A stretch of 64,000 nt of DNA, taken from contig CP137683.1 of NCBI GenBank assembly GCA_037976565.1, forward strand, positions 1,274,637 through 1,338,636. Direction: 5' to 3'. The position numbers and the translations under genes were made by a program. This document shows, piece after piece, positions 1 to 60,936 of this stretch. Position 1 is the first letter of the stretch. Every line of letters begins with the position of its first letter. The DNA comes from Mesocentrotus franciscanus. Taxonomy: Eukaryota > Echinodermata > Echinoidea > Camarodonta > Strongylocentrotidae. A model generated the notes under the pieces. The model saw only the letters and a program-made list of their open reading frames with translations. It had not been told where the DNA came from and did not search any database.

Positions 1-657
1 GTACTGATCTACAAAGTATAGAGTGATCAACAGTATCAAATGCCTTAGAAAGATCTTTAAGAAATGGCCAAAAACTAAATCCTTTTCTTCAAATGCAGAT
101 ACTATATTGTTAATAAATTCCAAAAGTGGAGGAGAGAGAGAGAGATAGTGAGAGAAAAGGGCAGGGACAGGGGGAGAGGTAGAGAGAGAGTGTGAAGAGG
201 GAAAGAGTGGGAGAGTGGGAGAGGGAGGTTGAGAATGAGGAGAGAGGGAAAGGTGAGAGGGAGGGAGAGAATGCGGAAAGATAGAAAAGAGGAAGGGAGG
301 CGGGAGGAAAATATGTAGGAGATGTAGAAAAGAGAGAGAGAGAGAGTAGGGGCCATGTACTTACTTCATACATACACTATGTTAAGGAAAGTAATATTTG
401 AAAGCGGAAAAAAGTATGAAAAAAAAAGAGATGTACACTAGCGTAGCTAAAGTCCCATCGAGATGGTACTAATACGATGAGGGGGGTAATGGTATTACTC
501 TGAAAATTAAATTTGACTTTACCAGGAGGTGTGGGAAGTGATCCAGGGGTTTCTTTTCTCGTCATTTTTTTCTTCTCCCTATCCACTTCCTCCTATCTCG
601 CTTCTCCTGTCCCTCCCTCCCGTTCTTTTTATTCTTTTCTCTCTACCTTATATATCC

Positions 658-660
658 TCG

Positions 661-693
<33 letters not shown>

Positions 694-708
694 CTCCCCT
701 CTCTCTGT
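658..708. repeat. (CT)n microsatellite in copy 1
   Basis: Duplicate of the tract at 9208-9258, with a purine-rich GA tract at 127-350 (8677-8895 in copy 2). Small frames here on both strands are microsatellite translations. Confidence 0.9.
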
Positions 709-2717
709 ATAAATGCATACACCCTTATATAACTATTACGTACAACCTTACATTCTAACACGCAAGTGTGGGTGCGTGAGTGTGTGTGTGTGTGTTATAA
801 AACACACCGCATCATCACACACGACCACACCCTCATCTTTAGGCCTATACAACCACGAATCGATTTCATTTCCTCCCGAGAAGAATGTTAAACTAATAAT
901 AAATAATAACGTGACATGTAAGGAAGAATAAAAGTGAGCCGCTTGAGTTTTTTTTTGCGAATATTTATTATCATAATCATATACATTTCAATCACCTCTA
1001 TACTAGCCATTTCATCCTAACCCCTTCCAGAAAGAGAAAGATGTGATACATCCGTCAAAGAAAAAAAAGGTGTCATGAATATGTAATGATGATCTTCGAA
1101 TCATCCAAGATTTTACCTGCAATACTGAATTTAAAAATGAGATTTCGTTGCAGTGTGAAGCAAATAAACTACACTACACAATTAAAAGTGAACATTAACC
1201 ATTTGTCGACCGGAGAGAGGTACTTCTTGTGGGAATTAAAAAATTCGAAGGTGATTGGTTTAAATAAAAATCCTGTAAGTACACAGTTCTTCATTTCTGA
1301 ATCAAAGTTAAAACATGTAGCCGCTTACTCTATCAACAGATCAAAGAGTTATGAACTAAAAACCGAGTGATGTGAATGTACACTTGATTTTCATTACATC
1401 CGTTTCGTTTTACCCAATCTTTCATCTCTTATCATTTCATGATCGTATAGAAGAAAAAACTACATAGAAGCCCTAGATCATCATAAGGAAATTCATATTT
1501 AAGATTGGTTGCCATTCGTTGTGGTTAATGGTAAAAGTCTAAAGTCGTTGTCATTTGATAAGCAGCAGCCCTCTAATCCTGCGTGGAATCAGCGAACTCG
1601 CTCCTCTACACTTGGTTTGGGTTCGGAGAAGACCCTCGCTAAAAGGACGAAATGCAGAATATGATTAAAGAAAACTTATTTATCCTAGTTTCTGGTTACT
1701 TTAGACGACTCATCTAGCTTCAGACAGAATTATGAAAAGATGTATCATGCTGCTATTACGCCTATTGGACTCTTAATATAATATTAAATCTTAATGAGCT
1801 GTGCATTTAAGCTAGGTAATACTGTATTTGACATGAAAACCAGGATATATATATTTTTTAATGGTTTGGTTTACAACTATTTGTCAAAATAAAGAAGACG
1901 GCAATATGAGGGCAATCTATATTTAAACAGACTTTATTTCATCAATCGATACATTAACGTTTTACCAAACGTTTAACCAAACGTTTAACCCTAATAAAAG
2001 TATTTGATTTGTCGACGTTTTATTTGAGAAACATCAATTGTTGACCAACCATTTTCCACGGTAATATTTATGAATGCATACTTTTATGTGGAAAACATAT
2101 TATATGTACAATTACCCACTAAATTATTCATACCTTTACCAAGTTTATCATTTTTGAAGTATGTGAAAATTGATTTGTCGCGATATACGTCTTTTGAGAA
2201 TGTGACATAATTATTAAAGCTTACGTCTAAAAATATTGAACAAAGGCCCTTATTCAACCAGTCTACCTTTCATTCTTGAGTTGCGTAAAACACAAAAACA
2301 ACAAATTCAAAAGGGGTATGAATAATTTAGTTGTTAACTATAACTATACATGTAGGTCAAATATGTTTTTAATTTTGTATTTAATAAACTTAGTCTCTTT
2401 TCAAAATGTTAATATTTGTACATGTGTCGTGTGTTTTTTTTATCAGCCTTGTAAACTACGATTCCACTTAAACTCACATTAAAGCAGAGAACGTTCCAAA
2501 TTTTACTCTGATTTTTCTCTCTTCCAAAGCAGTTTTATGTTCTGAAGAAACTATCCTGTAAGTCTATATGAAACACATAACCATAATTTGTTTCATAGCA
2601 TTTACTATCTGTTATAAATATAAATTATTTCACTTGTCAGAACTTTATCGATTAAACCTCAACCCAACAATGTAACACCTCGAAAGTATTCCTGAAAATG
2701 AATAATTTCAGTCTTAC

Positions 2718-2836
2718 CTGACACACTGCCTGGTAATCCCGGCAGCAATCACCATAATTCATGCAAGCAGCATCGCAATAGCATGCTCCAATGGGGTTGT
2801 AGGAACCGCATACACCCTCACATGAATAGCGTTCTC
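2718..2836 (-). CDS. Somatomedin-B-like exon, copy 1
   Basis: The exon is intact and has all eight cysteines (CEGVC, CYCDAAC, NYGDCCRDY). It differs from copy 2 at a few residues (for example Ile for Thr, Met for Arg, final Gln for Glu). Donor GTAAGA and acceptor are intact. It is out of frame with exon 2 only because of the upstream 5-bp deletion. Confidence 0.8.
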
Positions 2837-2934
2837 CTGCAAAAACAAGAACAACATTATATCAATAATCATAATATTCGATGTTTATTTAACGTTTAAT
2901 GCATCTACAATGTCTCTAAGCTCTCAATGGAAAT

Positions 2935-3165
2935 GTTATAACTCTGGTTACTAGATTCAGGCTTGCCCACAAGCAATGTATGCACATTCTTCACTGCCCT
3001 TCACTTGGGAGCACCCAAGCCAGGCGCCATTTTACAATCGTTCACAATGCTGGGCAAACTACACTGTCTTTCGCATCCCTGTGGGTTCCAATTTATCACC
3101 TGGGTAGAGAGAATCAATGTATACAAAATCCCTTGCTTAATGGCAGGAGATCAAACGCACGACTG
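2935..3165. repeat. Dispersed repeat fragment (SINE/LINE-tail type), copy 1
   Basis: The motif 'caatgtatgcacattc', followed by a gagcaccc-agccaggcg stretch and 'tttcgcatcc', recurs at 11965-12165 (duplicate) and independently at 20600-20830. This is a dispersed family lying in intron 2 of the gene. Confidence 0.65.
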
Positions 3166-3328
3166 TCGAATCTCCAGTCAAACTACTACGACTACGATGA
3201 GAGGTGTGTGTGTGTGGAGGGGTGATATACTTTACATGATTTGTATTCCCTCCAACATCGTTCCCTTTTTCAGGTTTTGCTGCAAAAGGGTGTACCAAGT
3301 ATTTAAAAGAGGTAAATAATGTACAAAC

Positions 3329-4037
3329 CTGTTGGAGGGGGTCCACTAGGTGGTGGCGGAGAGGCAGAGCTGTTGTTTGGTGGAGGCGGCGGAGGGGAAG
3401 AACCGTTGTTTGGTGGAGGAGGAGGAGGGGAAGAACCGTTGTTTGGTGGAGGAGGAGGAGGTGCAGAACCGTTGTTTGGTGGAGGAGGAGGAGGGGAAGA
3501 ACCGTTGTTTGGTGGAGGAGGAGGAGGTGCAGAACCGTTGTTTGGTGGAGGAGGAGGAGGGGAAGAACCGTTGTTTGGTGGAGGAGGAGGAGGGGAAGAA
3601 CCGTTGTTTGGTGGAGGAGGAGGAAGAACCGTTGTTTGGTGGAGGAGGAGGAGGGGCAGAACCGTTGTTTGGGTGTGAGTGGTTACCGGATCCATTGCCC
3701 GGGGGTGAAATGGTAGAGAAAAATAGCCCGCGCTTAACAATTCGACCGGCGCGTGAGTGGTTACCGGTTCCATTACCAGGTCTTGGTGGAGGAGGTCTGG
3801 TACCATTGATAGGCTGTGATTGGTTACCGGTGACATTACCAGGTCTCGGTGGAGGTGGAGCGGTGCCGTTGCTTGGGTGTGAGTGGTTACCGGTTCCATT
3901 ACCAGGTCTTGGTGGAGGAGGAGCGGTGCCGTTGCTTGGGTGTGAGTGGTTACGAGTCCCATTACCTGGTCTCGGTGGAGATGGGCCTGTACCGTTCCCT
4001 GGCCTTGGTCTTGGTCTCGGTGGCCGATTGCCGTTTG
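3329..4037 (-). pseudogene. Exon 2 of copy 1, expanded repeat with 5-bp deletion
   Basis: The exon is 709 bp against 633 bp in copy 2; 709 is not compatible with the flanking phases, whereas 633 is. It has extra PRPGNGTGNHS-type units and a different number of polyproline units. Both strands carry long open frames (plus 3350-4051, minus 3303-3962); the minus one changes from a Leu/His-rich frame to the true PPPPPPNNGS frame exactly at the deletion. Confidence 0.8.
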
Positions 4038-4425
4038 CTATAAGAATTTAACAGGGGAAAATGAATGGCCAATTAAAAACAAATTTCAATACAGTCCTTT
4101 ATAAAATGTCGTAAACGTACACGCATTAAATTCGTCTGCTTTAACCCGACAATATCCAAAATCAGTGATATTTTTAATAAATACACATTTAAATATAGCA
4201 CATGAAAAGCTTTTATAGTTCTCCGTATTGATGATCAAAATGTTTTCATACTTACGAGCCTGTGCGGCACAAACAGCAGCAAGGACCAGGATGACCAAGA
4301 GTCCGCTGAGAATTATTCGGCCTGACATGATGATATTGATGATATCAGCTTGGAGTAGTCTTTGATTGCTTGTGATCAGTATCTGGAAGGACACTGAATA
4401 TGGCTCTCATGGTTCTACCAGCCCC

Positions 4426-4433
4426 CTTTTATA
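4426..4433 (-). promoter_or_regulatory. TATA box of copy 1 gene
   Basis: The minus strand reads TATAAAAG about 98 bases upstream of the start codon, followed by a GC-rich stretch. The same element is at the same relative position in copy 2. Confidence 0.6.
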
Positions 4434-5820
4434 AGTTTTCGACATTTGAATTGTTAAAGGTAGCTCCGGAAAGGTATACCATTCACAATGTACTACGCGT
4501 TAGATTTCAAGGCGCAGTGTTTAACAAACCACAGGTGTACCTGTCTACTTCTTTTAGATCACGACATGTTTACGCTACCATTCCTTTTAACTTTTGCTTA
4601 GAAATCGGCGTTTCTGCTCATTGTCCATCTGTTCGTGTCCAGTTTGACTGTTTGGTCTGGTGGATTTTATTTCATTTATATTGGAGTGGTGTGTTTATTT
4701 ATGAGCAAACGTATGCATTAGTTTCATTTTTAGATTCAACAATAAACTTTTGAGAGGTCATGAGTTGCAATGGCGTAGAATGGGCTTTGTAAGTCAAGAA
4801 ATGGGGGATTGTGCTGGATGGCACCGTTCTTATTTGGCGGATGAAATGTGAATGAAAAGGCTACTAAATAAGTAGAGGGTGATGTTTGAAGCCCTGTCAT
4901 AATTATCGTTTCCCCTCTCCCATCTCTCCCACTCTCTCTCTCTCTATCTCTCTCCCTCTCCCGCTTTTAGGTTTGTTCTTCTTTTTCTGCATTTCGATTA
5001 GGAGGCACGCTTTCATTATTGTTTTTCTTTTTTGTAAATATCTTACGTTTCCTGGCACCTCGGGTGATAATTTTGTCCGTATCCAATGCGAGACATTCGT
5101 GAAATTATGTTAAACATGTTGCATTGTTTTTGATCAGATAAATGCTTTAAATAGGAATATTCAGGCTTGTGTGCATCCATCACTGAGGTATCATCATGTA
5201 TATCAAATATGGCAACCTCTCCCTTTCATTTACATGCCCCTGTAAAAACACTCACGTGACCACAAGCAGGTGTCACTGGCAATTCAGTGTGTGTAACCAG
5301 ATAGTTTTAAAAGATAATCTTTCGCGGACCTACTTATAACATCGCCGTGAAACTCTCTGGCTAAAATGCTGAAGTCAACAGCAGGTCGCTCCCGTCGCAC
5401 GCTATGTTTATTTTCTAAAAGTAGATTCAACTTTAATTTCACTTATTCTCTCTTTCCACGTCTTTCTTGTCCATCCCTTTTTTTAAATTCCTGTCATTTT
5501 CTCATCACCTTTCACAATGAAGAGGTTAATCCAATTGCTGAATTTTTTTCTACTGATCAGCACTCGATCCTGACAAACCAGCAATTGTGTCAATTTGTTA
5601 ATGTAGTAGGGTTAACGAAAGCACATGTATATTAATTATTCCCGTTATTATATAAAGTTTTTTTGTAAAGATTTCTAATCACAAAGGCCATAGGCGACTG
5701 TGACAGTATGAGATATCGTCATCTGATTTCGGAGTCGAATCTGCTGAAACTCTAAATAGTCTAAAGACATCATGAAGAGATTTTGTGCTAAAATACATAA
5801 AATACATGTATACATTGTAG

Positions 5821-6449: not shown

Positions 6450-8660
6450 AGTTCAAGTTCAAGTTTTATTTCCCACATTCCATTAAAAACATACCATTGA
6501 AAACATAAATAATATGATAGAATATGTATATATTGACAATACATTGCAGTAGAACGAAAATGTGGAAAGGGAAACGCTTAGGCCATTGGCCTTTCGAGGC
6601 AGAACCCTAACAAATATATTAATTGAACAATATGTACTACAAGCACAGAATATAAATTAACAAACCACAAAAAAAAAAAAAAACATAAATGCATTTATGA
6701 ATTGGTACCAATTTATCTGCAAGAACTAATTCACGAATACAAACCCTCACGTAATCTAGGGTCATCTTCTCAATTAAACCTCATGTCTAATTTGGTGTCA
6801 ACTCTTTCTTATGGTCATCGCTCTTTTTCCAAAGCTTCTGCTGAACTTTGGAACAAACCACCTTTAAACGTCAAAAACTGTCAAACTGTTAACCAATTCA
6901 AAACCTGTCTTAAAGATAAAGACCAGTTCTGGTCATGCGATTGCATTGTGAAAGAAACGTTGTGGAATCGATCAGAAAAGGTTGATCATCTACCATATAA
7001 GTATTGGTGTGTACTGCAAGGTTCTGGAATCATCAAAATGATAAGAAATTTGGCCCAGTCTTGGTAAAGTTACAAGCACTGTACACAGAAAGATGTATAT
7101 GGGACTACGCGACCACGTGCGCGATATCTATTTGGTCCCAATAGATATAATAATTTACCAAATATATCAATTAGTAGGCGGTTTCCCGACTTTCACGGCA
7201 AAATTTGTATCATCACGTATTAGTCAAAACATATTCTTTCACATGATTGTTAATGAGAGCTTCCATTTCATTTTTTTGAGAGAGGGCGTTTCCAAAACTG
7301 GTCTTTACCTTTAAGGCATATTTATTCAAAATTGCTTTTAATGATTAACTTACTCTGTTCACATTGATGTGTATTTCATATGTATTGTAATTTGTAGGTT
7401 TATTTGCACTTTTTTATTTTGTTTAATATGTAATTGTTTATCAGTCTATTATGTTTGTTATAGCGCTTAGAGACTTCGGTGGTAAGCACTTTATAAGCAA
7501 CGTTTTTATTATTATTATTATTATTATTAAAATACGGTCAAACAGAATATAAACGAACACCCTAAATGCAACAAACATTATAAAGAGGAATAACTTGATC
7601 AAGAGTCATGACAGTAAGAGCTAATAATATATTTCCTATGTTTTCTTTTAAAAGAGTTAGTTCAACAGAAACGGAATTCCAAAGCTGAGGCCTAGTGTAT
7701 TTTACATCGGTCCTTGAGATATTATAATAATAAAAGGAACATACACGTTATCGGAATTTCTGGTTTGATAACTTTTGGCGTACTTGTTATTTACAACATA
7801 TTCATTAAATACTGGTGGCAGAACACCCTTGAAATAAGAGTACATAAATTTGCGACATGAGTAACCTGAATATCAGATACTTTTAGAATGTTAAGTTATT
7901 GAAAAAGAGAATCTGTCGAGGCTAAAAAATGAGAGTTTGTTATAACACGTATTGCACGTTTTTTAAAATAAAATAAGTCTGTTCGATGTAGTGGTTACAC
8001 AATTTCCCCATACTATAGTACAATAACATAAGTGCGGTAAAATCAGTTTTTGGTAAAGGTTGACAAGAATACGCAATGGGAGGATGATCTGTAGCTTGTT
8101 TAATACACTTATTGCTTTTGATATTTTACATGAAACGTCTTTAACATGTTCTTTCCAGTTCAAACAATCATCAATGACCACTCCTAAGAATTGTGTAATT
8201 TTCACCTGCTTAATTTTATGTTTAAATATTTCTACATTAATAGTATCAGTATTCAATCTCCTATTGCGGGTTTTAAACACCATGCAACATGTTTTTTTCG
8301 TAATTAATTGAGAGTTTACTTGATGAAAACCAGTAATTGACTTTGTCAAGTTCTAAATTAAATTGAATGTTTTGTTTCGTGCAGATCATTTCCAGACATG
8401 AATAAATTAGTATCATGTGCAAATATAATCGGACAAAGGATATTGCTAACAAACTGCAGGTCATTTGGATACAATAAGAAAAGTAATGGACCTAAAACGG
8501 AGCCCTGTGGTACTCCTATTGGAAGAGCTTTGCGTTGAAAGCTGTACTGATCTACAAAGTATAGAGTGATCAACAGTATCAAATGCCTTAGAAAGATCTT
8601 TAAGAAATGGCCAAAAACTAAATCCTTTTCTTCAAATGCAGATACTATATTGTTAATAAA
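6450..8660 (-). mobile_element. Decayed non-LTR retrotransposon (LINE), minus strand, interrupted
   Basis: On the minus strand 8358-8666 encodes RT motif B (GVPQGSVLGPLLFLLY) and a mutated motif C (FAHDTN instead of FADDTN). 7963-8349 continues with the thumb region (QFLGVVIDDCLNWKEHV). The 3' end appears at 6450-6670, with CAAGTT repeats at 6450-6465. A plus-strand LINE 3' end (about 6669-7530) interrupts it. The left duplication boundary lies inside this element (8544). Confidence 0.8.
6669..7532 (+). mobile_element. 5'-truncated LINE 3' end with (ATT)n tail, plus strand
   Basis: 6702-7067 encodes the typical C-terminal tail of non-LTR retrotransposon ORF2 proteins (PIYLQELIHEYKPSRNLGSS ... 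GHRSFSKASAELWNKPP). It is followed by a 3' UTR with the 'gcgctta...ctttataagcaac' signature and an ATT tandem tail at 7508-7530, as in L2-like elements. It is inserted in the minus-strand LINE. Confidence 0.8.
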
Positions 8661-10159
8661 TTCCAAAAGTGGAGGAGAGAGAGAGAGATAGTGAGAGAAA
8701 AGGGCAGGGACAGGGGGAGAGGTAGAGAGAGAGTGTGAAGAGGGAAAGAGTGGGAGAGTGGGAGAGGGGGTTGAGAATGAGGAGAGAGGGAAAGGTGAGA
8801 GGGAGGGAGAGAATGCGGAAAGATAGAAAAGAGGAAGGGGAGGCGGGAGGAAAATATGTAGGAGATGTAGAAAAGAGAGAGAGAGAGAGTAGGGGACATG
8901 TACTTACTTCATACATACACTATGTTAAGGAAAGTAATATTTGAAAGCGGAAAAAAGTATCGAAGAAAAAGAGATGTACACTAGCTTAGCTAAAGTCCCA
9001 TCGAGATCGTACTAATACGATGAGGGGGGGGGGGTGTAATGGTATTACTCTGAAAATTAAATTTGACTTTACCAGGAGGTGTGGGAAGTGATCCAGGGGT
9101 TTCTTTTCTCGTCATTTTTCTCTTCTCCCTATCCACTTCCTCCTATCTCGCTTCTCTTGTCCCTCCCTCCCGTTCTTTTTTATTCTTCTCTCTCTATCTT
9201 ATATATCCTCGCTCTCTCTCTCTCTCACTCTCTCTCTTTCTCTCTCCTCCCCTCTCTCTGTATAAATGCATACACCCTTATATAACTCTTACGTACAACC
9301 TTACATTCTAACACGCATGTGTGTGCGTGAGTGTGTGTGTGTGTTATACAACACACCCGCATCATCACACACGACCACACCCTCATCTGTAGGCCTATAC
9401 AACCACGAATCGATTTCATTTCCTCCCGAGAAGAATGTTAAACTAATAATAAATAATAACGTGACATGTAAGGAAGAATAAAAGTGAGCCGCTTGAGTTT
9501 TTTTTGCGAATATTTATTATCATAATCATATACATTTCAATCACCTCTATACTAGCCATTTCATCCTAACCCCTTCCCGAAAGAGAAAGATGTGATACAT
9601 CCGTCAAAGAAAAAAAAAATGTGTCATGAATATGTAATGATGATCTTCGAATCATCCAAGATTTTACCTGCAATACTGAATTTAAAAATGAGATTTCGTT
9701 GCAGTGTGAAGCAAATGAACTACGTACATTACACAATTGAAAGTGAACATTAACCATTTGTCGACCGGAGAGAGGAACTTCTTAGGGGATTCAGAAAATT
9801 CGAAGCTCAATGGTTTAAATAAGATCCTGTAAGTACACAGTTCTTCATTTCTGAATCATAGTTAAAACATGTAGCCGCTTACTCTATCAACAGATCAAAG
9901 AATTATGAACTAAAAACCGAGTGATGTGAATGTGAACTTGATTTTCATGTATTCCGTTTCGTTTCACCCAATATATCATCTCTTATCATTTCATGATCGT
10001 ATAGAAGAAAAAACTACATAGAAGCCCTAGATCATCATAAGGAAATTCATATTTAAGATTGGTTGCCATTCGTTGTGGTTAATGGTAAAAGTCTAAAGTC
10101 GTTGTCATTTGATAAGCAGCAGCCCTCTAATCCTGTGTGGAATCAGCGAACTCGCTCCT

Positions 10160-10195
10160 CTACACTTGGTTTGGGTTCGGAAGAGAAGACCCTCG
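10160..10195 (-). CDS. Predicted terminal mini-exon, copy 2
   Basis: After a pyrimidine-rich acceptor (CCTTTTAG), a phase-0 reading gives RGSSLPNPNQV and a stop. The copy-1 counterpart (1606-1638) differs by exactly one codon (an in-frame 3-bp indel), which supports a coding role, although a chance indel is possible. It lies 74 bp from a hAT-like insertion in the preceding intron. Confidence 0.45.
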   Translation of the reverse strand, partial: RGSSLPNPNQV

Positions 10196-13100
10196 CTAAA
10201 AGGACGAAATGCAGAATATGATTAAACAAAAGAAAACTTATTTAGCATAGTTTCTTGTCTCTTTAGACCATGGGTGGCCAACCTGCGGCCCGCGAGCTCT
10301 TCTGGTGGGGCCCGCGGAGCATTGAAAAAAAAATTATAAAAATAGCTCATAAATGAAATGCGGCCCGCATAGCAGCGATGAAATAGGGTAAAATAATTAC
10401 ACACAGCTATCTCTATTTCTATAATTTGTTTTCATCATTCACAACATATTGACTCGTTATGGGGGTTTACTTTAGGGGGTTTAACGCCCCCCTCACTTGG
10501 GCTGCCAAGTGAAAATGTGATGTGCATATTGTGAGAAGATATTCAACTCATCTGGTAACTTAAGAAAACACATGATAACTCTGGATATAACTGTGTTTTG
10601 AACTGATACTTGATTTAAAAAGACGTTATCATGCACTGCTTTTTATGGTCTCCATTGTGTTAGAAGATGCCAGGAAAACATCACTCACGGGGGTTCAAAA
10701 TAGCAACAACAAACACCCCTGCTTTAGATGACTTGTCTAGCTTTAGACATAATTATAAAAAAGATGTCTCATGCTGCTATCACGCCTATTGGACTCTTAA
10801 TATGATATTAAATCTTAATAAGCTGTGCATTTAAGCTATATAATACTGTAATTGACATGAAAACTGGGATATTTTCAATTTTTTGAATGGTTTGGTTTAC
10901 AACTATTTGTCAAAATAAAGAAGACGGCAGTATGAATGCAATAAATATTAAAACAGACTTTCTTTTAACAATCGATACATTTACGTTTTACCAAACGTTT
11001 AACCAAACGTTTAACCCTCATAAAAGTTTTTAATTTGTCGACGTTTTATTTGAGAAACATCAATTGTTGACCAACCATTTTCCACGGTAATATTTATGAA
11101 TGCATACTTTTATGTGGAAAACATATTATATGTACAATTACCCACTAAATTATTCATACCCTGACCAATTTTTATCATTTTTAAAGTATGTGAAAATTGA
11201 TTTGTCGCGATTTACGTCTTTTGAGAATGTGACATAATTATTGAACCTTACATCTAAAAGTATTGAACAAAGGCCCTCATTCAACCAGTCTACCTTTAAT
11301 TTTTGAGTTGCAAAAAACACAAAAACAACAAATTTAAAATGGGAATAAATAATTTAGTTGTTAACTATAAGTATACATTTAGGCAAAATATATTTTAAAT
11401 GTTGTATTTAATAAACTTAGTCTCTTTTCAAAATGTTAATATTTGAACATGTGTCGTTCTTTTTTTTATCAGCCTTGTTAACTACGAACAAACCTAATCT
11501 CTCATTAAGGCTTAGAACGTTCCAAAAAAAATTCAGGTTTTGGTCTCTTCCAAAGCAATATTATGTTCTGAAGAGACTATCCTGTAAGTCTACATAAAAC
11601 ACATGAACATAATTTGTTTCATAGCATTTACTATCTGTTATAAATATAAATTGTCAGAACTTTATCGATTAAACCTCAAACCAACAATGTACCACCTAGA
11701 AAGTATTCCTGAAAATAAATAATTTCAGTCTTACCTCACACACTGCCTGGTAATCCCGGCAGCAATCACCATAATTCCTGCAAGCTGCATCACAATAACA
11801 TGCTCCAGTGGGGTTGTAGGAACCGCATACACCCTCACATGAATGACGTTCTCCTGCAGAAAAAAAAACAAAATTATATCAATAATGATAATATTCATGG
11901 TTTATTTAGCGTTTAATACATCTACGATGTCTCTAAGCTCTCAACGGAAATGTTATTACTCTGGTTACTAGATTGCCCAGAAGCAATATATGCACATTAT
12001 TCACTGCCCAGTGAGCACCCAAGCTAGGCGCCATTTGACAATCGTTCACAATCATGCTGAGCAAACTCTTTCGCATCCCAGCGGATACCAATTTATCACC
12101 TGGGTAGAGAGAATCGAGGCACACAAATCCCTTGTTTAATGACATAAGTCCGTGCAGGGGATCAAACACAAAACTGTCGCTTCACCAGTAAAATTTAAAC
12201 TATTTGACTATGATGAGAGGTATGTTTGTGTGGAGGGGTGATCCCCTCCCAGATCGTTCCTCTTTTTTTCAGGTTTTTGCTGAAAAAGGAAGTGATTATT
12301 TTCGATACTGTACTCCTACTTGAATAGGGTATAACCTTGCTGCATACCCAAATATATAAAAGAGGTGAAAAATCTACTAACCTGTTGAAGGGAGTCCACT
12401 AGGTGGCGGAGGAGGGGCAGAGCTGTTGTTTGGTGGAGGCGGCGGAGGGGAAGAACCGTTGTTTGGTGGAGGAGGAGGAGGGGAAGAACCGTTGTTTGGT
12501 GGAGGAGGAGGAGGGGCAGAGCTGTTGTTTGGTGGAGGAGGAGGAGGGGCAGAACCGTTGTTTGGTGGAGGAGGAGGAGGAGGAGAAGAACCGTTGTTTG
12601 GTGGAGGAGGAGGAGGGGAAGAACCGTTGTTTGGTGGAGGAAGAGGAGGGGAAGAACCGTTGTTTGGTGGAGGAGGAGGAGGGGCAGAACCGTTGTTTGG
12701 GTGTGAGTGGTTACCGGATCCATTGCCCGGGGGTGGGGGTGAAATGGGAGAGGAAAATAGCCCGCGCTTAACGATTCGACCGGCGCGTGAGTGGTTACCG
12801 GTGCCATTACCAGGTCTTGGTGGAGGGGGCCTGGTGCCATTGATTGGCTGTGAGTGGTTACCGGTGCCATTACCATGTCTTGGTGGAGGAGGAGCGGTGC
12901 CGTTGCTTGGGTGTGAGTGGTTACCAGTGCCATTACCAGGTCTCGGTGGAGGTGGGCCTGTACCGTTCCCTGGTCTTGGTCTTGGTCTTGGTCTTGGTGG
13001 CCGATTACCGTTTGCTATAAGAATTTGATAGGGAAACATGAATGGCCAACTAAAAACCCAGTCTTATATGAAATGTCGTAAACTTACAAGAATTTAATTC

Positions 13101-13296
13101 GCTTCCTGTGACCCTACAGTAGTCAAAGTCAGTGATATTTTCAGTAAATACCCATTTAAATATAGCACATAAAAAGGCTTTTATAGTTCTCCGTATTGGT
13201 GATTAAAATGTTGTCATACTTACGAGCCTGTGCAGCACAAACAGCAGCAAGGACCAGGATGACCAAGAGTCCGCTGAGAATTATTCGGCCTGCCAT
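10160..13296 (-). CDS. Secreted N-glycosylated polyproline repeat protein with somatomedin-B domain (intact copy)
   Basis: Inferred exons (minus strand): 13224-13296, 12382-13014, 11735-11853 and 10160-10195. All junctions have GT/AG sites and agree in phase, giving 286 aa. Residues 1-24 are a signal peptide (MAGRIILSGLLVILVLAAVC followed by AAQA). Residues 25-100 are Arg/Pro-rich with NGT and NHS sequons. A dibasic site (IVKR) lies at 105-108. Then come nine units of about 11 residues reading NNGS(S/A)PPPPPP, followed by a somatomedin-B-like domain at about 236-275 with eight cysteines spaced C-x3-C-x8-C-x-C-x3-C-x5-CC-x6-C. About twenty potential N-glycosylation sites are present. A TATA box lies upstream. 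The start was chosen because it opens the signal peptide. The role is unknown; the architecture suggests an extracellular adhesive, mucin-like or defence protein. The last exon is the least certain. Confidence 0.8.
10261..10729. mobile_element. hAT-like non-autonomous transposon with 8-bp target duplication
   Basis: The element body is 10269-10721 (453 bp). It begins CATGGGTGGCCAACCTGCGG and ends ACACCCCTG, so the ends are short imperfect inverted repeats (CAGGGGTG type). It is flanked by CTTTAGAC (10261-10268) and CTTTAGAT (10722-10729), an 8-bp duplication typical of hAT elements. Copy 1 of the duplication has the uninterrupted site at 1699-1706. Confidence 0.85.
11735..11853 (-). CDS. Exon 3 (somatomedin-B-like domain), copy 2
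   Basis: The 119-bp exon has acceptor CTGCAG and donor GTAAGA. It encodes about 39 residues with eight Cys and the signature CDAAC, NYGDCCRDY and a final Cys, matching the somatomedin-B fold (vitronectin, ENPP and PRG4 type). Upstream and downstream phases (1 and 0) fit the flanking exons. Confidence 0.88.
11960..12165. repeat. Dispersed repeat fragment, copy 2
   Basis: Duplicate of the fragment at 2935-3165. It shares the core motifs with the independent copy at 20600-20830. Confidence 0.65.
12382..13014 (-). CDS. Exon 2 (NGT/NHS and NNGS-polyproline repeats), copy 2
   Basis: This 633-bp exon has acceptor TTATAG and donor GTTAGT. The 3' two-thirds is a 33-bp minisatellite encoding NNGS(S/A)PPPPPP; the 5' part encodes PRPGNGTGNHS-type units. 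The whole exon is open in frame from the signal-peptide phase to the somatomedin-B phase. The opposite strand is also open (12426-13028, Gly/Leu-Phe-Gly-rich), which follows from the 33-bp period and is taken as a shadow. Confidence 0.85.
13224..13296 (-). CDS. Exon 1 (signal peptide), somatomedin-B repeat gene copy 2
   Basis: The exon encodes a 24-residue hydrophobic signal peptide and ends in phase 1 at a consensus donor (GTAAGT). It is nearly identical to the copy-1 exon (Ala instead of Ser at residue 2). Confidence 0.85.
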
Positions 13297-13393
13297 GATG
13301 ATATTGATGATATCAGTTTGGAGTGGTCTTTGGTTGCTAGTGATCAGTATCTGGAAGGACACTGACTATGGCTCTCATGGTTCTACCAGCCCC

Positions 13394-13401
13394 CTTTTAT
13401 A
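13394..13401 (-). promoter_or_regulatory. TATA box of copy 2 gene
   Basis: The minus strand reads TATAAAAG about 98 bases before the ATG. A TCAGTG initiator-like sequence lies about 30 bases downstream. It is conserved with copy 1. Confidence 0.6.
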
Positions 13402-14599
13402 AGTTTTCGATATTTGAATTCTGAAGGTTGGTCCGGAAAGGTATACCATTCACAATGTAGTACGCGTTTGATGTCAAGGCGCAGTGTTTAACAAACCACA
13501 GGTGTACCTGTCTACTTCTTTTAGATCACGACATGTTTACGCTACCATCCCTTTTAACTTTTGCTTAGAAATCGCCGTTTTTGCTCGTTGTCCATCTGTT
13601 CGTGTCCAGTTTGACTGTTTGGTCTGATGGATTTTATTTCATTTATATTGGAGTGGTGTGTTTATCCATGAGCAAACGTATGCTTTAGTTTCATTTCTAG
13701 ATTCAACAATAAACTTTTGAGAGTTCATGAGTTGCAATGGCGTAGTGTGGGCTTTGTGAACCAAGAAACGGGGGTGTGCTGGATGGCACCGTTCTTATGT
13801 GGCGGATGGAATGTAAATGAAAAGGCTACTAAATAAGAAGAGGGTAATGCTTGAAGTCCTGTCATCTCGTTTTCCCCTCTTCCATCTCTCCCCTTCTCTC
13901 TCCCTCTCCCTCTTTCAATTTTTTCTTCTGTTTCTGCATTTCGATAAGGAGGCACGCCTTCATTATTGTTTTTCTTTTTTTAATGATTTTACGTTTTTTG
14001 GCACCTCGGGTGATAATTTTGTCGGTATCCAATGCGAGACATTCGTGAAATTATGTTGAACATCTTTACATTGTTTTTGATCAGATAATAAGTTTCTTCA
14101 TTAATAGAATTATGGTTTAAAGGGGTATATTTTGCACTTTACACGTAGTGCATTTAATAGAATTATTCAGGCTTGTGTGCATTCATCACTGAGGTATCAT
14201 CATGTATATCAAATATGGCAACCTTTCCCCTTCATTGACATGCCCCTGTAAAAACACTCACGTGCCCACAAGCAGGTGTCACTGGCAATTCAGTGTGCGT
14301 AACCAGATAGTTTTAAAAGATAATCTTTCGCGGAAGCCGTGAAACTCTCTGGTTAAAACGGTTAAGTCAACAGCAGGTCGCTCCCGTTGCACGCTATGTT
14401 CATTTTCTCTAAGTATATTCAACTTTAATTTCAGTTATTCTCTCGTTCCACGTCTTTCTTGTCCATCCCTTTTTTTAATTCCTGTCATTTTCTCATCACC
14501 TTTCACAATGAAGAGGTTAAACCAAGTGGAAAAATTGTGCTGAATATTTGTACTGATCAGCACTCCTGACAAATCAGCAATTGTGTCAATTTATTAATG

Positions 14600-14890
14600 T
14601 GGTAGGGCAGGGGCGGATCCAGCGGGCGGCAAGGGAGGGGGCCGAAAAAGGGGCCCACTTCGTGCGAAAATTTGAAAACCGTGCCGGCCGATTTTCCGCT
14701 CAGTGGTAGGGGTAGTGAGGAATTTTTTTGGGGGCCTCAGAAAATTTGAATTTTTTTTTAACCACCCCCCCCCTTGAGCGCCAGGGGAGGGGGCCCATCT
14801 TCTTCTTTTTTTACATAAAGGTGTTTTTACCTGTTTTTTTTTTAGGGGACGGGGCCCGGGCCGGCCCCTGGATCCGCCACTGTGGTAGGG
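14600..14890. mobile_element. hAT-like MITE with 8-bp target duplication
   Basis: The element is 14608-14882 (275 bp), GC-rich, beginning CAGGGGCGGATCCAG and ending CTGGATCCGCCACTG (inverted termini). It is flanked by TGGTAGGG on both sides (14600-14607, 14883-14890). Copy 1 has the empty site at 5604-5611 (one base different). Confidence 0.88.
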
Positions 14891-15111
14891 TTAGCAACTG
14901 TACATGTATAATAATTATCCCCGCCCTTATATAAAGTTTTTGCACAGACATCTAATCATAAAGGCCATAGGCGACTGTAAGAGTTTGACATATCGTCATC
15001 TGATTTCGGAGACGATTTTGCCTGAAGCTCCAAATAGTGAAAAGACATCATGAAAAGATTTTGTGCTGAAATACATGAAATACATTTTTCTATTCGTTTT
15101 ATTTCTGTCCC

Positions 15112-15118
15112 GCTCCCC

Positions 15119-15149
<31 letters not shown>

Positions 15150-15179
15150 TTTCTCTATCTCTCTCTCTCTCTCTCTCTT
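15112..15179. repeat. (CT)n microsatellite at the right edge of copy 2
   Basis: Lies between the duplication breakpoint (15085) and the tubulin retrocopy (15249); absent after copy 1. Confidence 0.9.
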
Positions 15180-15248: not shown

Positions 15249-15668
<420 letters not shown>

Positions 15669-16365: not shown

Positions 16366-18017
16366 TGGAATTATATGAATTTTCTAGAACAACTCCAAAT
16401 TATAAGGGAAAAGGTTCAAGGAATGAGGAAACAAACTACCGTCCCACTCTGTTGTAAGCCATATCCCTAAAATAATAGAAAAGGAAATTCAGGAACAACT
16501 ACTACGTTATCTTCTTAAACACAATCTGATCAATATTGAACAACATGCTTTCCTACCGAAACAATCAACGACAACTTGTCTGCATAGAGTTATCGATGAA
16601 TTTCTTGATGCATTTAATGAAAAAGAAAAAGTTGGAGCATGTTTCTTAGATATATCAAAATGTTTCGATAGTGTAGACCATGATAATCTACTCTACAAAA
16701 TGCAGCAATATGTTATTGCTGATAACATGCTAAGATGGTTTTCAAGTTATCTGAAGGAAAGAAAACAAGTTGTATTCTCGCAAGGTAAACTTTCTGCAAA
16801 AAAGGAACTATCAGTAGGGGTACCGCAAGGAGGAGCACTTGCCCCGATCATATTTTTACTTTTTATCAATGATATATCACAATCAATCTGGAGTTATAAC
16901 AATATATGCTGATGATGTTATTTTATTTGAGATAGGGGAAGATGTGCAGACAATAACCTCTAGACTACAATCAAATATTGATTCTATTAATGATTGGTAT
17001 AAACAAAACCACTTAAGGATTAATGTTGACAAAACAATGAGTATATTACTGCAAACGCGTTCTCATGAAACTCTGAAAATATATATTGATGGAATTGAAA
17101 TTGAACAGGTCAAGTCCATACGATACTTAGGCGTTGAAATTCATGAAAATTTAAAGTGGGATATTCATGTTAATAACCTATGCAAATATATTGGATACAA
17201 GATCCGTTCTCTTGGAAAACTGAGGAAATTTTTAAGTTCCTCTTTATTGAACACTCTTTATAAACTTACAATACAACCTTGCATTGATTATGGTATTTCT
17301 GTCTAGGGCAACTGTGCAGATAAACATAAAATTAAACTACAAAGATTACAAAAACGAGCCGCACGTTATATAACTGGCAACTTTGACCTGAATGTTTCCT
17401 TCAAAACACTTTCAAAAAGATTATCTTGGCAAGACATAGATGAAAGGAAAGACTACTTTCTTGCCACACAAATGTTTAAATGTATACATGGTCTAGCCCC
17501 CACAACTTTGTAATGATATCGAAATGTTTTGTGATCGACATAATTACCATACTAGGAATAAAGATAGGCTTAATGTAGTCCCACCTGAAGTCCACCTCTC
17601 AATTTTCAAACAAGCCTTTATTTTTTTCCGGTGCTAAACGAGGGAATGGCATTCCCCACTTTATACAAAATGCCCATACAATTAAAACTTTTAAATTGAT
17701 TTATAAGAAGTTTTATTTTTAATTTTATTTTGTAAGTAAATATTTATATCTATTGTACTTTTTCGTATTTCTTTTATATTTAATTATATGTATAATACAG
17801 AAGTATGTTATGTCTGATGATACTTACCTGTTTGACTTTTTACTATTTATTTTTATTTTATGTCAATATATGCAGTTAAATGATTTTATTTTGAAAATTT
17901 GTTATACATTTCATATGTTATTGCTTTTTAATGTTAACAGGACCATGTTGAAAAACAGTATACCTGAACAAATTATCCTGTATAAAGATGTTTTAATAAA
18001 TAAATAAATAAATAAAC
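16366..18017 (+). mobile_element. Decayed LINE reverse transcriptase, plus strand
   Basis: In shifting frames the segment encodes YKGKGSRNEETNYRP, RT motif A (FLDISKCFDSVDH), motif B (GVPQGGALAPIIF), an intact motif C (YADD) and the thumb (RYLGVEIHENLKWDIHVN). There are frameshifts near 16445 and 16900, an in-frame stop near 17304 and more decay after. It ends with an (AAAT)n tail at about 17993-18017. The 5' end is truncated in the RT domain exactly at the tubulin poly(A). Confidence 0.88.
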
Positions 18018-21424: not shown

Positions 21425-45954
<24,530 letters not shown>

Positions 45955-46934
45955 GTTGCTATGCTTGCCCTAAGCCAAAACAGCACAAAATTAACTCCTC
46001 ATATATTTGCTAGCAGTAACGTCGTGGAAAAATAGCCTTTATTCGTCGCCATACCAGCCGATTGTACATTACAGGTTCGATAATCTCGTTTACATGCGTG
46101 AAATTGAGCGTGGGTTATTGCAAACAGCACTCAGCATGCTACCTTAACTATCTCAAACATCCCAAATTCGTCGCCTTTACGTCCTTCACGTCTCCTCGAG
46201 CTTCACACACAACTACCTGTTTGCACACACTCGGTCGGAGCACTACACACACAGATGTGGCAACCGTTTCATTACCAATGCACTGTGCTTTATCTACGTA
46301 AGATTGTGAAATGGTGAAATTCAGTGCTTTCACGCTCACCCATTTCCCCTTAGTGCGTTGTAGCGTCCACGCTTTTTTGACGTCACAAGAAGTCGCATCG
46401 GAAAGAATAAAACAACCTACTCAATCCTTATTACACCCAACTTGCTAAAGTTGATATGACGCAAGTGTGCCTCTTCAACAAATATTTTTACTTCTACCAC
46501 CTCCGTCTCTCTCTCTCTCTCTTACTCTCTCCTACTTTCTCCTTTCTCTTCCCCCTCCCCCATTCCCTTTCTCCATCTCTATATTCTCCATGTCTATTAC
46601 CAGCAGCATCCTCCCGATATTACCATCTGTTTTATTTTGCCATAATAATTATTTGCACCTTTCCATGTTTCCATTACCTTTTTCCTCCTGAGGAACTGAA
46701 TTAAAAAAAAAAAAATCTTCATTTCTAAACGGGATTTATCCAAAAACATATGGATACCTCTTTTGTGTTGGTTAGTTGGATAATTTGTTTGCTAATTTTT
46801 TTTTTTTTTTTTTTTTTTTGTTGGGGGTTATTTTGTTGTGTTTTGTTTTTGTGTGCTGCTTGTTTGTTCTATTTAATAACAATTGACGTGTGCAGATTTC
46901 AAAGCGGATTGCGTTTTTCATAGCCATTATTAAT

Positions 46935-60587: not shown

Positions 60588-60936
60588 GATAACCACCCCC
60601 AATCAACTACCCCCTAGGACAACTATCCCCTAGGACAACTACCCCCTAGGGCAACCACCCTCTAACACGACCACCCCCTGGGACAACTACCCCCGGACAA
60701 CTACACCCAGACAACTACCCCTAGGACAACTACCCCCTAGGACAACTACCCACCGGACAACTACCTCATAGGACAACTACCCCCTGGACAACTACCCCCC
60801 AAACAACTATCCTAGAGGGTAGTTGTCCGGGGGTAGTTGTCCTAGTTGGTAGTTGTCCGGGGGTAGTTGTCCTAGGAGGTAGTTGTCCGGGGGTAGTTGT
60901 CCTATAGGGGGTAGTTGTCCTAGGGGGTAGTTGTCA
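60588..60936. repeat. Minisatellite inverted at its centre
   Basis: About fourteen units of GGACAACTACCCCCTA (14-18 bp) in one orientation up to about 60810, then eight units of the exact reverse complement (TAGGGGGTAGTTGTCC). The whole can fold into a long hairpin. Confidence 0.92.

What the first reader, a model, noticed from the sequence alone, without database searches (positions are those of the whole stretch)
10160..13296. Candidate undescribed secreted family: N-glycosylation sequons on a polyproline stalk capped by a somatomedin-B domain
Four exons in consistent phase join a signal peptide, about 75 residues of NGT/NHS-bearing Arg/Pro sequence, nine NNGS(S/A)PPPPPP units and an eight-Cys somatomedin-B domain. 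About twenty N-glycosylation sequons regularly placed between polyproline blocks would give a stiff, heavily glycosylated rod. I know somatomedin-B with mucin-like O-glycosylated repeats (PRG4/lubricin), but not this N-sequon/polyproline design.
Basis: partly seen in the sequence, partly recalled or inferred. Interest (0 to 1): 0.82.

Follow-up and report, generated by a model that had tools for sequence, protein, structure and literature searches.

The report
Sea-urchin glycosylated proline-rich gene array
A sea-urchin-like genome carries a row of eleven related gene copies, three of them clearly intact, for a secreted protein built of proline blocks and sugar-attachment sites and ending in a small cysteine-rich domain; the repeat design resembles a human salivary glycoprotein, but the combination appears undescribed.

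Summary
On the minus strand four exons (13296-10160) join in phase into 286 aa: signal-peptide-like start, 22 N-X-S/T motifs (20 non-overlapping) between polyproline blocks, and a C-terminal eight-cysteine somatomedin-B domain. It is one of 11 copies found genome-wide, all within about 200 kb, two of them in this window. Three copies are intact and differ as a coding gene under purifying selection does (pN/pS 0.21-0.28; third-position excess); a fourth is open with an internal frame switch; seven show frame loss, a truncated domain or no domain. The one convincing relative is a purple-urchin prediction with the same repeats joined to the domain. The repeat design has a precedent: human salivary PRB3 has 21-residue Pro repeats, N-glycosylated every 21 residues. 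My paper searches showed no report of it combined with somatomedin-B. Best reading: a secreted N-glycosylated proline-rich coat or lubricant glycoprotein, anchored by the somatomedin-B knob, possibly cut at a conserved Lys-Arg. A defence effector is the main rival. New variant of a known kind; transcripts, glycans and function are untested.

The parts
13224..13296 (-). Exon 1 of copy B (the finding): start codon and signal peptide, ends in phase 1
   Evidence: 96-100% aa identity in 11 of 11 copies
12382..13014 (-). Exon 2 of copy B: Arg/Pro start, sequon/polyproline repeats
   Evidence: substitution pattern
12787..12960 (-). 63-bp (21-residue) repeats with NGT/NHS sequons
   Evidence: reading
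12408..12700 (-). 33-bp (11-residue) NNGS(S/A)PPPPPP repeats
   Evidence: nine units counted
12764..12769 (-). Lys-Arg of IVKRGLF, possible dibasic processing site
   Evidence: residues 107-108; sequence seen in 7 of 7 somatomedin-B-type copies; cleavage is inferred
11735..11853 (-). Exon 3 of copy B: somatomedin-B domain with eight Cys
10160..10195 (-). Exon 4 of copy B: short C-terminal tail RGSSLPNPNQV and stop
13395..13401 (-). TATAAAA box of copy B
   Evidence: sequence; TATAAAA present in 11 of 11 aligned promoters
1606..4328 (-). Copy A: exons 4256-4328, 3329-4037, 2718-2836, 1606-1638; exon 2 is 709 bases, frame lost inside the repeats
8544..15085 (.). Segment that repeats window 1-5807 (about 84-96% identity in pieces); a CT microsatellite follows at 15119-15178

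Best explanation
A recently amplified sea-urchin gene family for a secreted, N-glycosylated proline-rich glycoprotein that works like the salivary glycosylated proline-rich proteins, with a somatomedin-B knob added at the C-terminus. Shown by sequence: signal-peptide-like exon, sequon/polyproline stalk in frame with somatomedin-B, conserved promoter, purifying selection among intact copies, different repeat numbers between copies. Inferred: the sequons carry glycans; the polyproline blocks keep the chain extended; the protein coats or lubricates a surface or holds microbes in mucus or coelomic fluid; the knob binds a partner and anchors it; a dibasic protease may cut at Lys-Arg and free an Arg/Pro-rich N-terminal glycopeptide.
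For: Gene model in phase; somatomedin-B by profile; pN/pS 0.21, 0.28, 0.28 between the three intact copies; third positions hold 27 of 41 and 26 of 40 exon-2 differences to copy B, and all 7 gaps in these two comparisons are multiples of three (the two comparisons share copy B); exon 1 71-72 of 73 and exon 3 109-111 of 119 identical to copy B against 164-167 of 197 in intron 1 (5 copies); promoter identity to a distal copy peaks at about 0.9 around the start codon and falls to about 0.4 by -800; purple-urchin prediction with the same order and five sequons before the domain; PRB3 shows that Pro-rich repeats with one sequon per 21 residues are N-glycosylated in nature.
Against: No transcript, tissue or glycan data. 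Seven of 11 copies show frame loss, a truncated domain or no domain. Gene conversion between copies could mimic part of the conservation. The basic Arg/Pro N-terminal piece and the Lys-Arg site fit a defence peptide at least as well. The purple-urchin prediction itself shows frame switches, no signal peptide and an unrelated-looking tail. P0001 was the only convincing relative in three protein searches.
Confidence: 0.45

Rival explanations
1. A diversifying defence-effector family: a modular protein whose basic Arg/Pro-rich N-terminal part (RPRPRPRP) is released at Lys-Arg and acts on microbes, with a Cys-rich second module as in penaeidins and arasins (recalled); the array and its unstable repeats make variants, as proposed for sea-urchin Sp185/333 genes.
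For: N-terminal piece of about 85-104 residues (taking the mature start at residue 24, an assumption) with 13-14 Lys/Arg and no Asp/Glu in the 3 intact copies; Lys-Arg in 7 of 7 somatomedin-B-type copies; array with microsatellites as in the Sp185/333 cluster.
Against: Purifying, not diversifying, substitution among intact copies; no penaeidin or other antimicrobial profile at E up to 1; dense sequons are not typical of such peptides (recalled); no expression data.
Confidence: 0.25
2. A structural extracellular-matrix, adhesive or biomineral-associated protein: the stalk is a spacer and the somatomedin-B knob binds matrix, as vitronectin and PRG4 do (recalled).
For: Somatomedin-B relatives in solved structures include vitronectin and ENPP proteins; stalk 39% Pro.
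Against: No hemopexin or other matrix domain found; no tissue data.
Confidence: 0.2
3. A decaying gene family or minisatellite with little or no present function; the open frames are partly a by-product of stop-poor repeats.
For: Seven of 11 copies are broken or lack the domain; exon 2 of copy B is also open over its full length in a second minus-strand frame and on the plus strand.
Against: Third-position excess, low pN/pS and multiple-of-three gaps among intact copies; TATA box in 11 of 11 promoters; same architecture predicted in purple urchin.
Confidence: 0.1

Closest known systems
Human salivary glycosylated proline-rich proteins (PRB3 / Gl)
   Same: Secreted, 21-residue Pro-rich tandem repeats with a regularly placed N-glycosylation site, gene in a family cluster, repeat number varies between alleles (PMC3235478 and PMC10454625, passages)
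   Different: PRB3 repeats have one sequon per 21 residues, here three per 21-residue unit or one per 11; here a somatomedin-B domain follows; no sequence relationship shown, so I read it as convergence
PRG4 / lubricin (recalled; papers seen as a listing only)
   Same: Somatomedin-B joined to a Pro-rich, heavily glycosylated repeat stalk
   Different: In PRG4 somatomedin-B is N-terminal, the stalk is O-glycosylated and a hemopexin domain follows (recalled); here somatomedin-B is C-terminal, sequons are N-type and no hemopexin was found
Sea-urchin Sp185/333 (SpTransformer) genes
   Same: Tandem array, leader in exon 1, repeat-mosaic exon 2, microsatellites around the duplicated segments (PMC3091723, abstract and passages; here)
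   Different: Four exons instead of two, Cys-rich domain, Pro/Asn repeats
LOC105443879 of Strongylocentrotus purpuratus (XP_011675841.1)
   Same: NHS/NGT/PPPPR repeats running through NSSAP.PPPSG into somatomedin-B; 72-78% identity in the domain
   Different: Uncharacterised prediction without signal peptide, with frame switches and an extra coiled-looking tail

Membership tests
Somatomedin-B domain (PF01033) | Profile match above the curated cut-off | tested here: met
   35.1 bits for the whole protein, 39.9 for the domain piece, cut-off 23.1
Somatomedin-B domain (PF01033) | Eight cysteines | tested here: met
   Cys 241, 245, 254, 256, 260, 266, 267, 274
Somatomedin-B domain (PF01033) | Somatomedin-B fold | tested here: inconclusive
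   Two models of low confidence, mean pLDDT 58.8 and 56.9; no fold search run
Salivary glycosylated PRP (PRB3) | 21-residue Pro-rich tandem repeats with N-sequons | tested here: met
   63-bp repeats at 12787-12960 with NGT/NHS sequons; published PRB3 repeat
Salivary glycosylated PRP (PRB3) | Sequence homology to the family | tested here: not met
   Somatomedin-B was the only Pfam family at E up to 1; no direct alignment to PRB3 was made
Salivary glycosylated PRP (PRB3) | Experimentally occupied N-glycosylation sites | not testable with these tools
   Needs glycopeptide mass spectrometry
PRG4 / lubricin | Somatomedin-B plus hemopexin domain (recalled) | tested here: not met
   No hemopexin match at E up to 1 in the 286-aa model
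Sp185/333 | Two exons, leader in the first | tested here: not met
   Four exons; published structure
Sp185/333 | Tandem cluster with microsatellites at the edges of duplicated segments | tested here: met
   11 copies; CT microsatellite just beyond the duplicated segment at 15119-15178 and others inside it; edges of the other copies were not examined one by one
Sp185/333 | Induction on immune challenge | not testable with these tools
   No expression data held
Penaeidin | Penaeidin profile (recalled to be in Pfam) | tested here: not met
   No match at E up to 1

The most novel reading that the evidence does not exclude
A sea-urchin-specific, fast-turning defence gene family: unstable repeats that stay open in more than one frame yield length and frame variants of a secreted N-glycosylated Arg/Pro-rich protein that is cut at Lys-Arg into a basic glycopeptide and a somatomedin-B-tethered rod; unrelated to Sp185/333 but organised like it.
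Probability: 0.15. Interest if true: 0.72.

Novelty: new variant of a known kind. Interest (0 to 1): 0.5.

Why it matters
If true, the N-glycosylated proline-rich repeat known from human saliva arose separately in an echinoderm and was coupled there to somatomedin-B. The 11-copy array lets repeat growth, frame loss and selection be followed gene by gene, and a role as coat, lubricant or defence protein is directly testable.

Tried and rejected
Rejected: a single-copy gene (11 copies); a mere minisatellite; a repeat principle without precedent; membership of Sp185/333, PRG4 or penaeidin (membership test).

Led nowhere: the protein search with the somatomedin-B part and with the N-terminal part gave nothing. 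One search gave 2 proteins among 7974 scored candidates (capped list); I set aside P0002, a metagenome protein with polyproline before a C-terminal somatomedin-B domain, because I see no sequon or signal peptide in it (read by eye); it could still be a distant parallel. Structure models were too weak for a fold search, so none was run. Ten paper searches showed no title on a sea-urchin somatomedin-B protein; most hits were not opened.

Dropped before counts: repeat-exon hits under 60 residues, the four distal copies (acceptor pattern not matched) and copy 1153736 (exon 4 pattern not matched) got no full model, exon 2 of the four distal copies was cut at 1300 bases because no donor was recognised, so some of their later frame counts may lie beyond the exon, 3 of the 7 neighbour frames were tested. 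Frame losses could in part be assembly errors; no reads were available. Genome DNA searches give lower bounds by the tool's own statement.

Full report
What is there. The minus strand of 10160-13296 carries four exons with GT-AG junctions that join in phase into 286 aa: a signal-peptide-like start; an Arg/Pro stretch with 21-residue repeats carrying NGT and NHS (63-bp repeats); a short unique segment with IVKRGLF; nine NN(G/S)S(S/A) polyproline units; and a C-terminal somatomedin-B domain (PF01033, 35.1 bits) whose best matches among solved structures are an endoribonuclease, ENPP proteins and vitronectin. There are 22 sequon motifs, 20 non-overlapping. The stalk (residues 24-236, mature start assumed) is 39% Pro with 13 Lys/Arg and no Asp/Glu. 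TATAAAA lies at 13395-13401 and is present in 11 of 11 aligned promoters. An AATAAA lies 636-641 bases after the stop in 5 of 7 somatomedin-B-type copies.

It is an array. The window lies at C18:1274637-1338636 of a 773-Mb, 21-contig genome. A probe of exon 1 plus promoter gives 11 matches, all between 1.09 and 1.29 Mb of that contig (a lower bound by the tool's statement). Seven copies are of the somatomedin-B type and mostly 8.5-11 kb apart within blocks; two are in this window. Four more distant copies, one inverted, share promoter and exon 1 but have another repeat (RNGSSPPPP, RDGSDSPPPP), several frame changes, an exon-4-like tail and no somatomedin-B match. A genome search with the domain gave 19 matches: 6 in the array and 13 remote ones of at most 55% identity on C13 and C8. 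A seventh, truncated domain exon (copy 1153736) was seen only.

Intact and broken copies. Three copies (start codons at C18 1164595, 1173091 and 1287932, the last being the finding) keep one frame through exon 2 and give 313, 303 and 286 aa with 25, 24 and 22 sequon motifs. A fourth (1182173) is open to the end, but its middle runs in another frame before returning. Copies 1153736, 1270410 and 1278964 (window copy A) have lost the frame or part of the domain. Between the intact three, pN/pS is 0.21, 0.28 and 0.28. Against copy B, third positions hold 27 of 41 and 26 of 40 exon-2 differences (one-sided binomial p 2e-5 and 4e-5, not independent), and the 3 and 4 gaps are all multiples of three. 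In the domain alone, copy B differs from each of the other five by 4 amino-acid changes against 4 (four copies) or 6 (one copy) synonymous ones over about 93 nonsynonymous and 24 synonymous sites: the same direction, but few events. Exons are more alike than intron 1, and promoter identity to the distal copies peaks around the start codon. Gene conversion may contribute.

Relatives. The first protein search gave two proteins. P0001, a purple-urchin prediction, has NHS, NGT and PPPPR repeats running through NSSAPLPPPSGPPPTG into the domain, 72-78% identical in the domain. It supports the join of repeat and domain in a second species, but it lacks a signal peptide, shows frame switches and has an unrelated-looking tail. 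P0002, a metagenome protein with polyproline before a C-terminal somatomedin-B domain, I set aside as a distant parallel. Two further protein searches found nothing.

Known parallels. Human PRB3 has 6, 7 or 10 repeats of 21 residues combining Pro blocks with N-(Q/K)-(S/P) (PMC3235478, passages), and its 3M form carries N-glycans at Asn 66, 87, 108, 129, 150, 171, 192 and 213 (PMC10454625, passages). Sp185/333 genes are a tandem array with leader exon, mosaic second exon and microsatellites at the edges (PMC3091723, abstract and passages); this array is organised alike but is not a member (four exons, Cys-rich domain). PRG4, penaeidin and arasin features are recalled; PRG4 papers were seen as a listing only.

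Mechanism. Shown by sequence: secretion signal, stalk and domain in one frame, conserved promoter, selection. Inferred: glycan occupancy, extended chain, anchoring by the domain, cleavage at the Lys-Arg seen in 7 of 7 somatomedin-B-type copies. I put a coat or lubricant glycoprotein at 0.45, a defence effector at 0.25, a matrix or adhesive protein at 0.2 and a decaying family at 0.1.

Noticed in passing
window 12316-13028: Exon 2 of copy B is open over its full length in a second minus-strand frame (232 aa) and on the plus strand (215 aa), so indels in the repeats rarely meet a stop; copy 1182173 leaves the frame and returns.
   Followed up: partly
C18:1090000-1120500 of the own genome (L010-L013): Four distal copies keep promoter and exon 1 (about 91-92% DNA identity) although exon 2 changes frame and no somatomedin-B exon was found; three stop early after an Arg/Pro-rich start.
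   Followed up: partly
window 15249-15665 (+) and 16427-16909 (+): Just beyond the array: a stretch with a tubulin C-terminal domain and a reverse-transcriptase stretch.
   Followed up: no
window 45442-45969 (-): Open stretch with a urea-transporter match (PF03253, 76.7 bits).
   Followed up: no
window 60604-60935: Tandem array of a 16-base unit facing its own reverse complement, a large inverted repeat.
   Followed up: no
C13 and C8 of the own genome (L035-L038): Thirteen remote somatomedin-B exons on two contigs, several close together, perhaps further somatomedin-B gene families.
   Followed up: no
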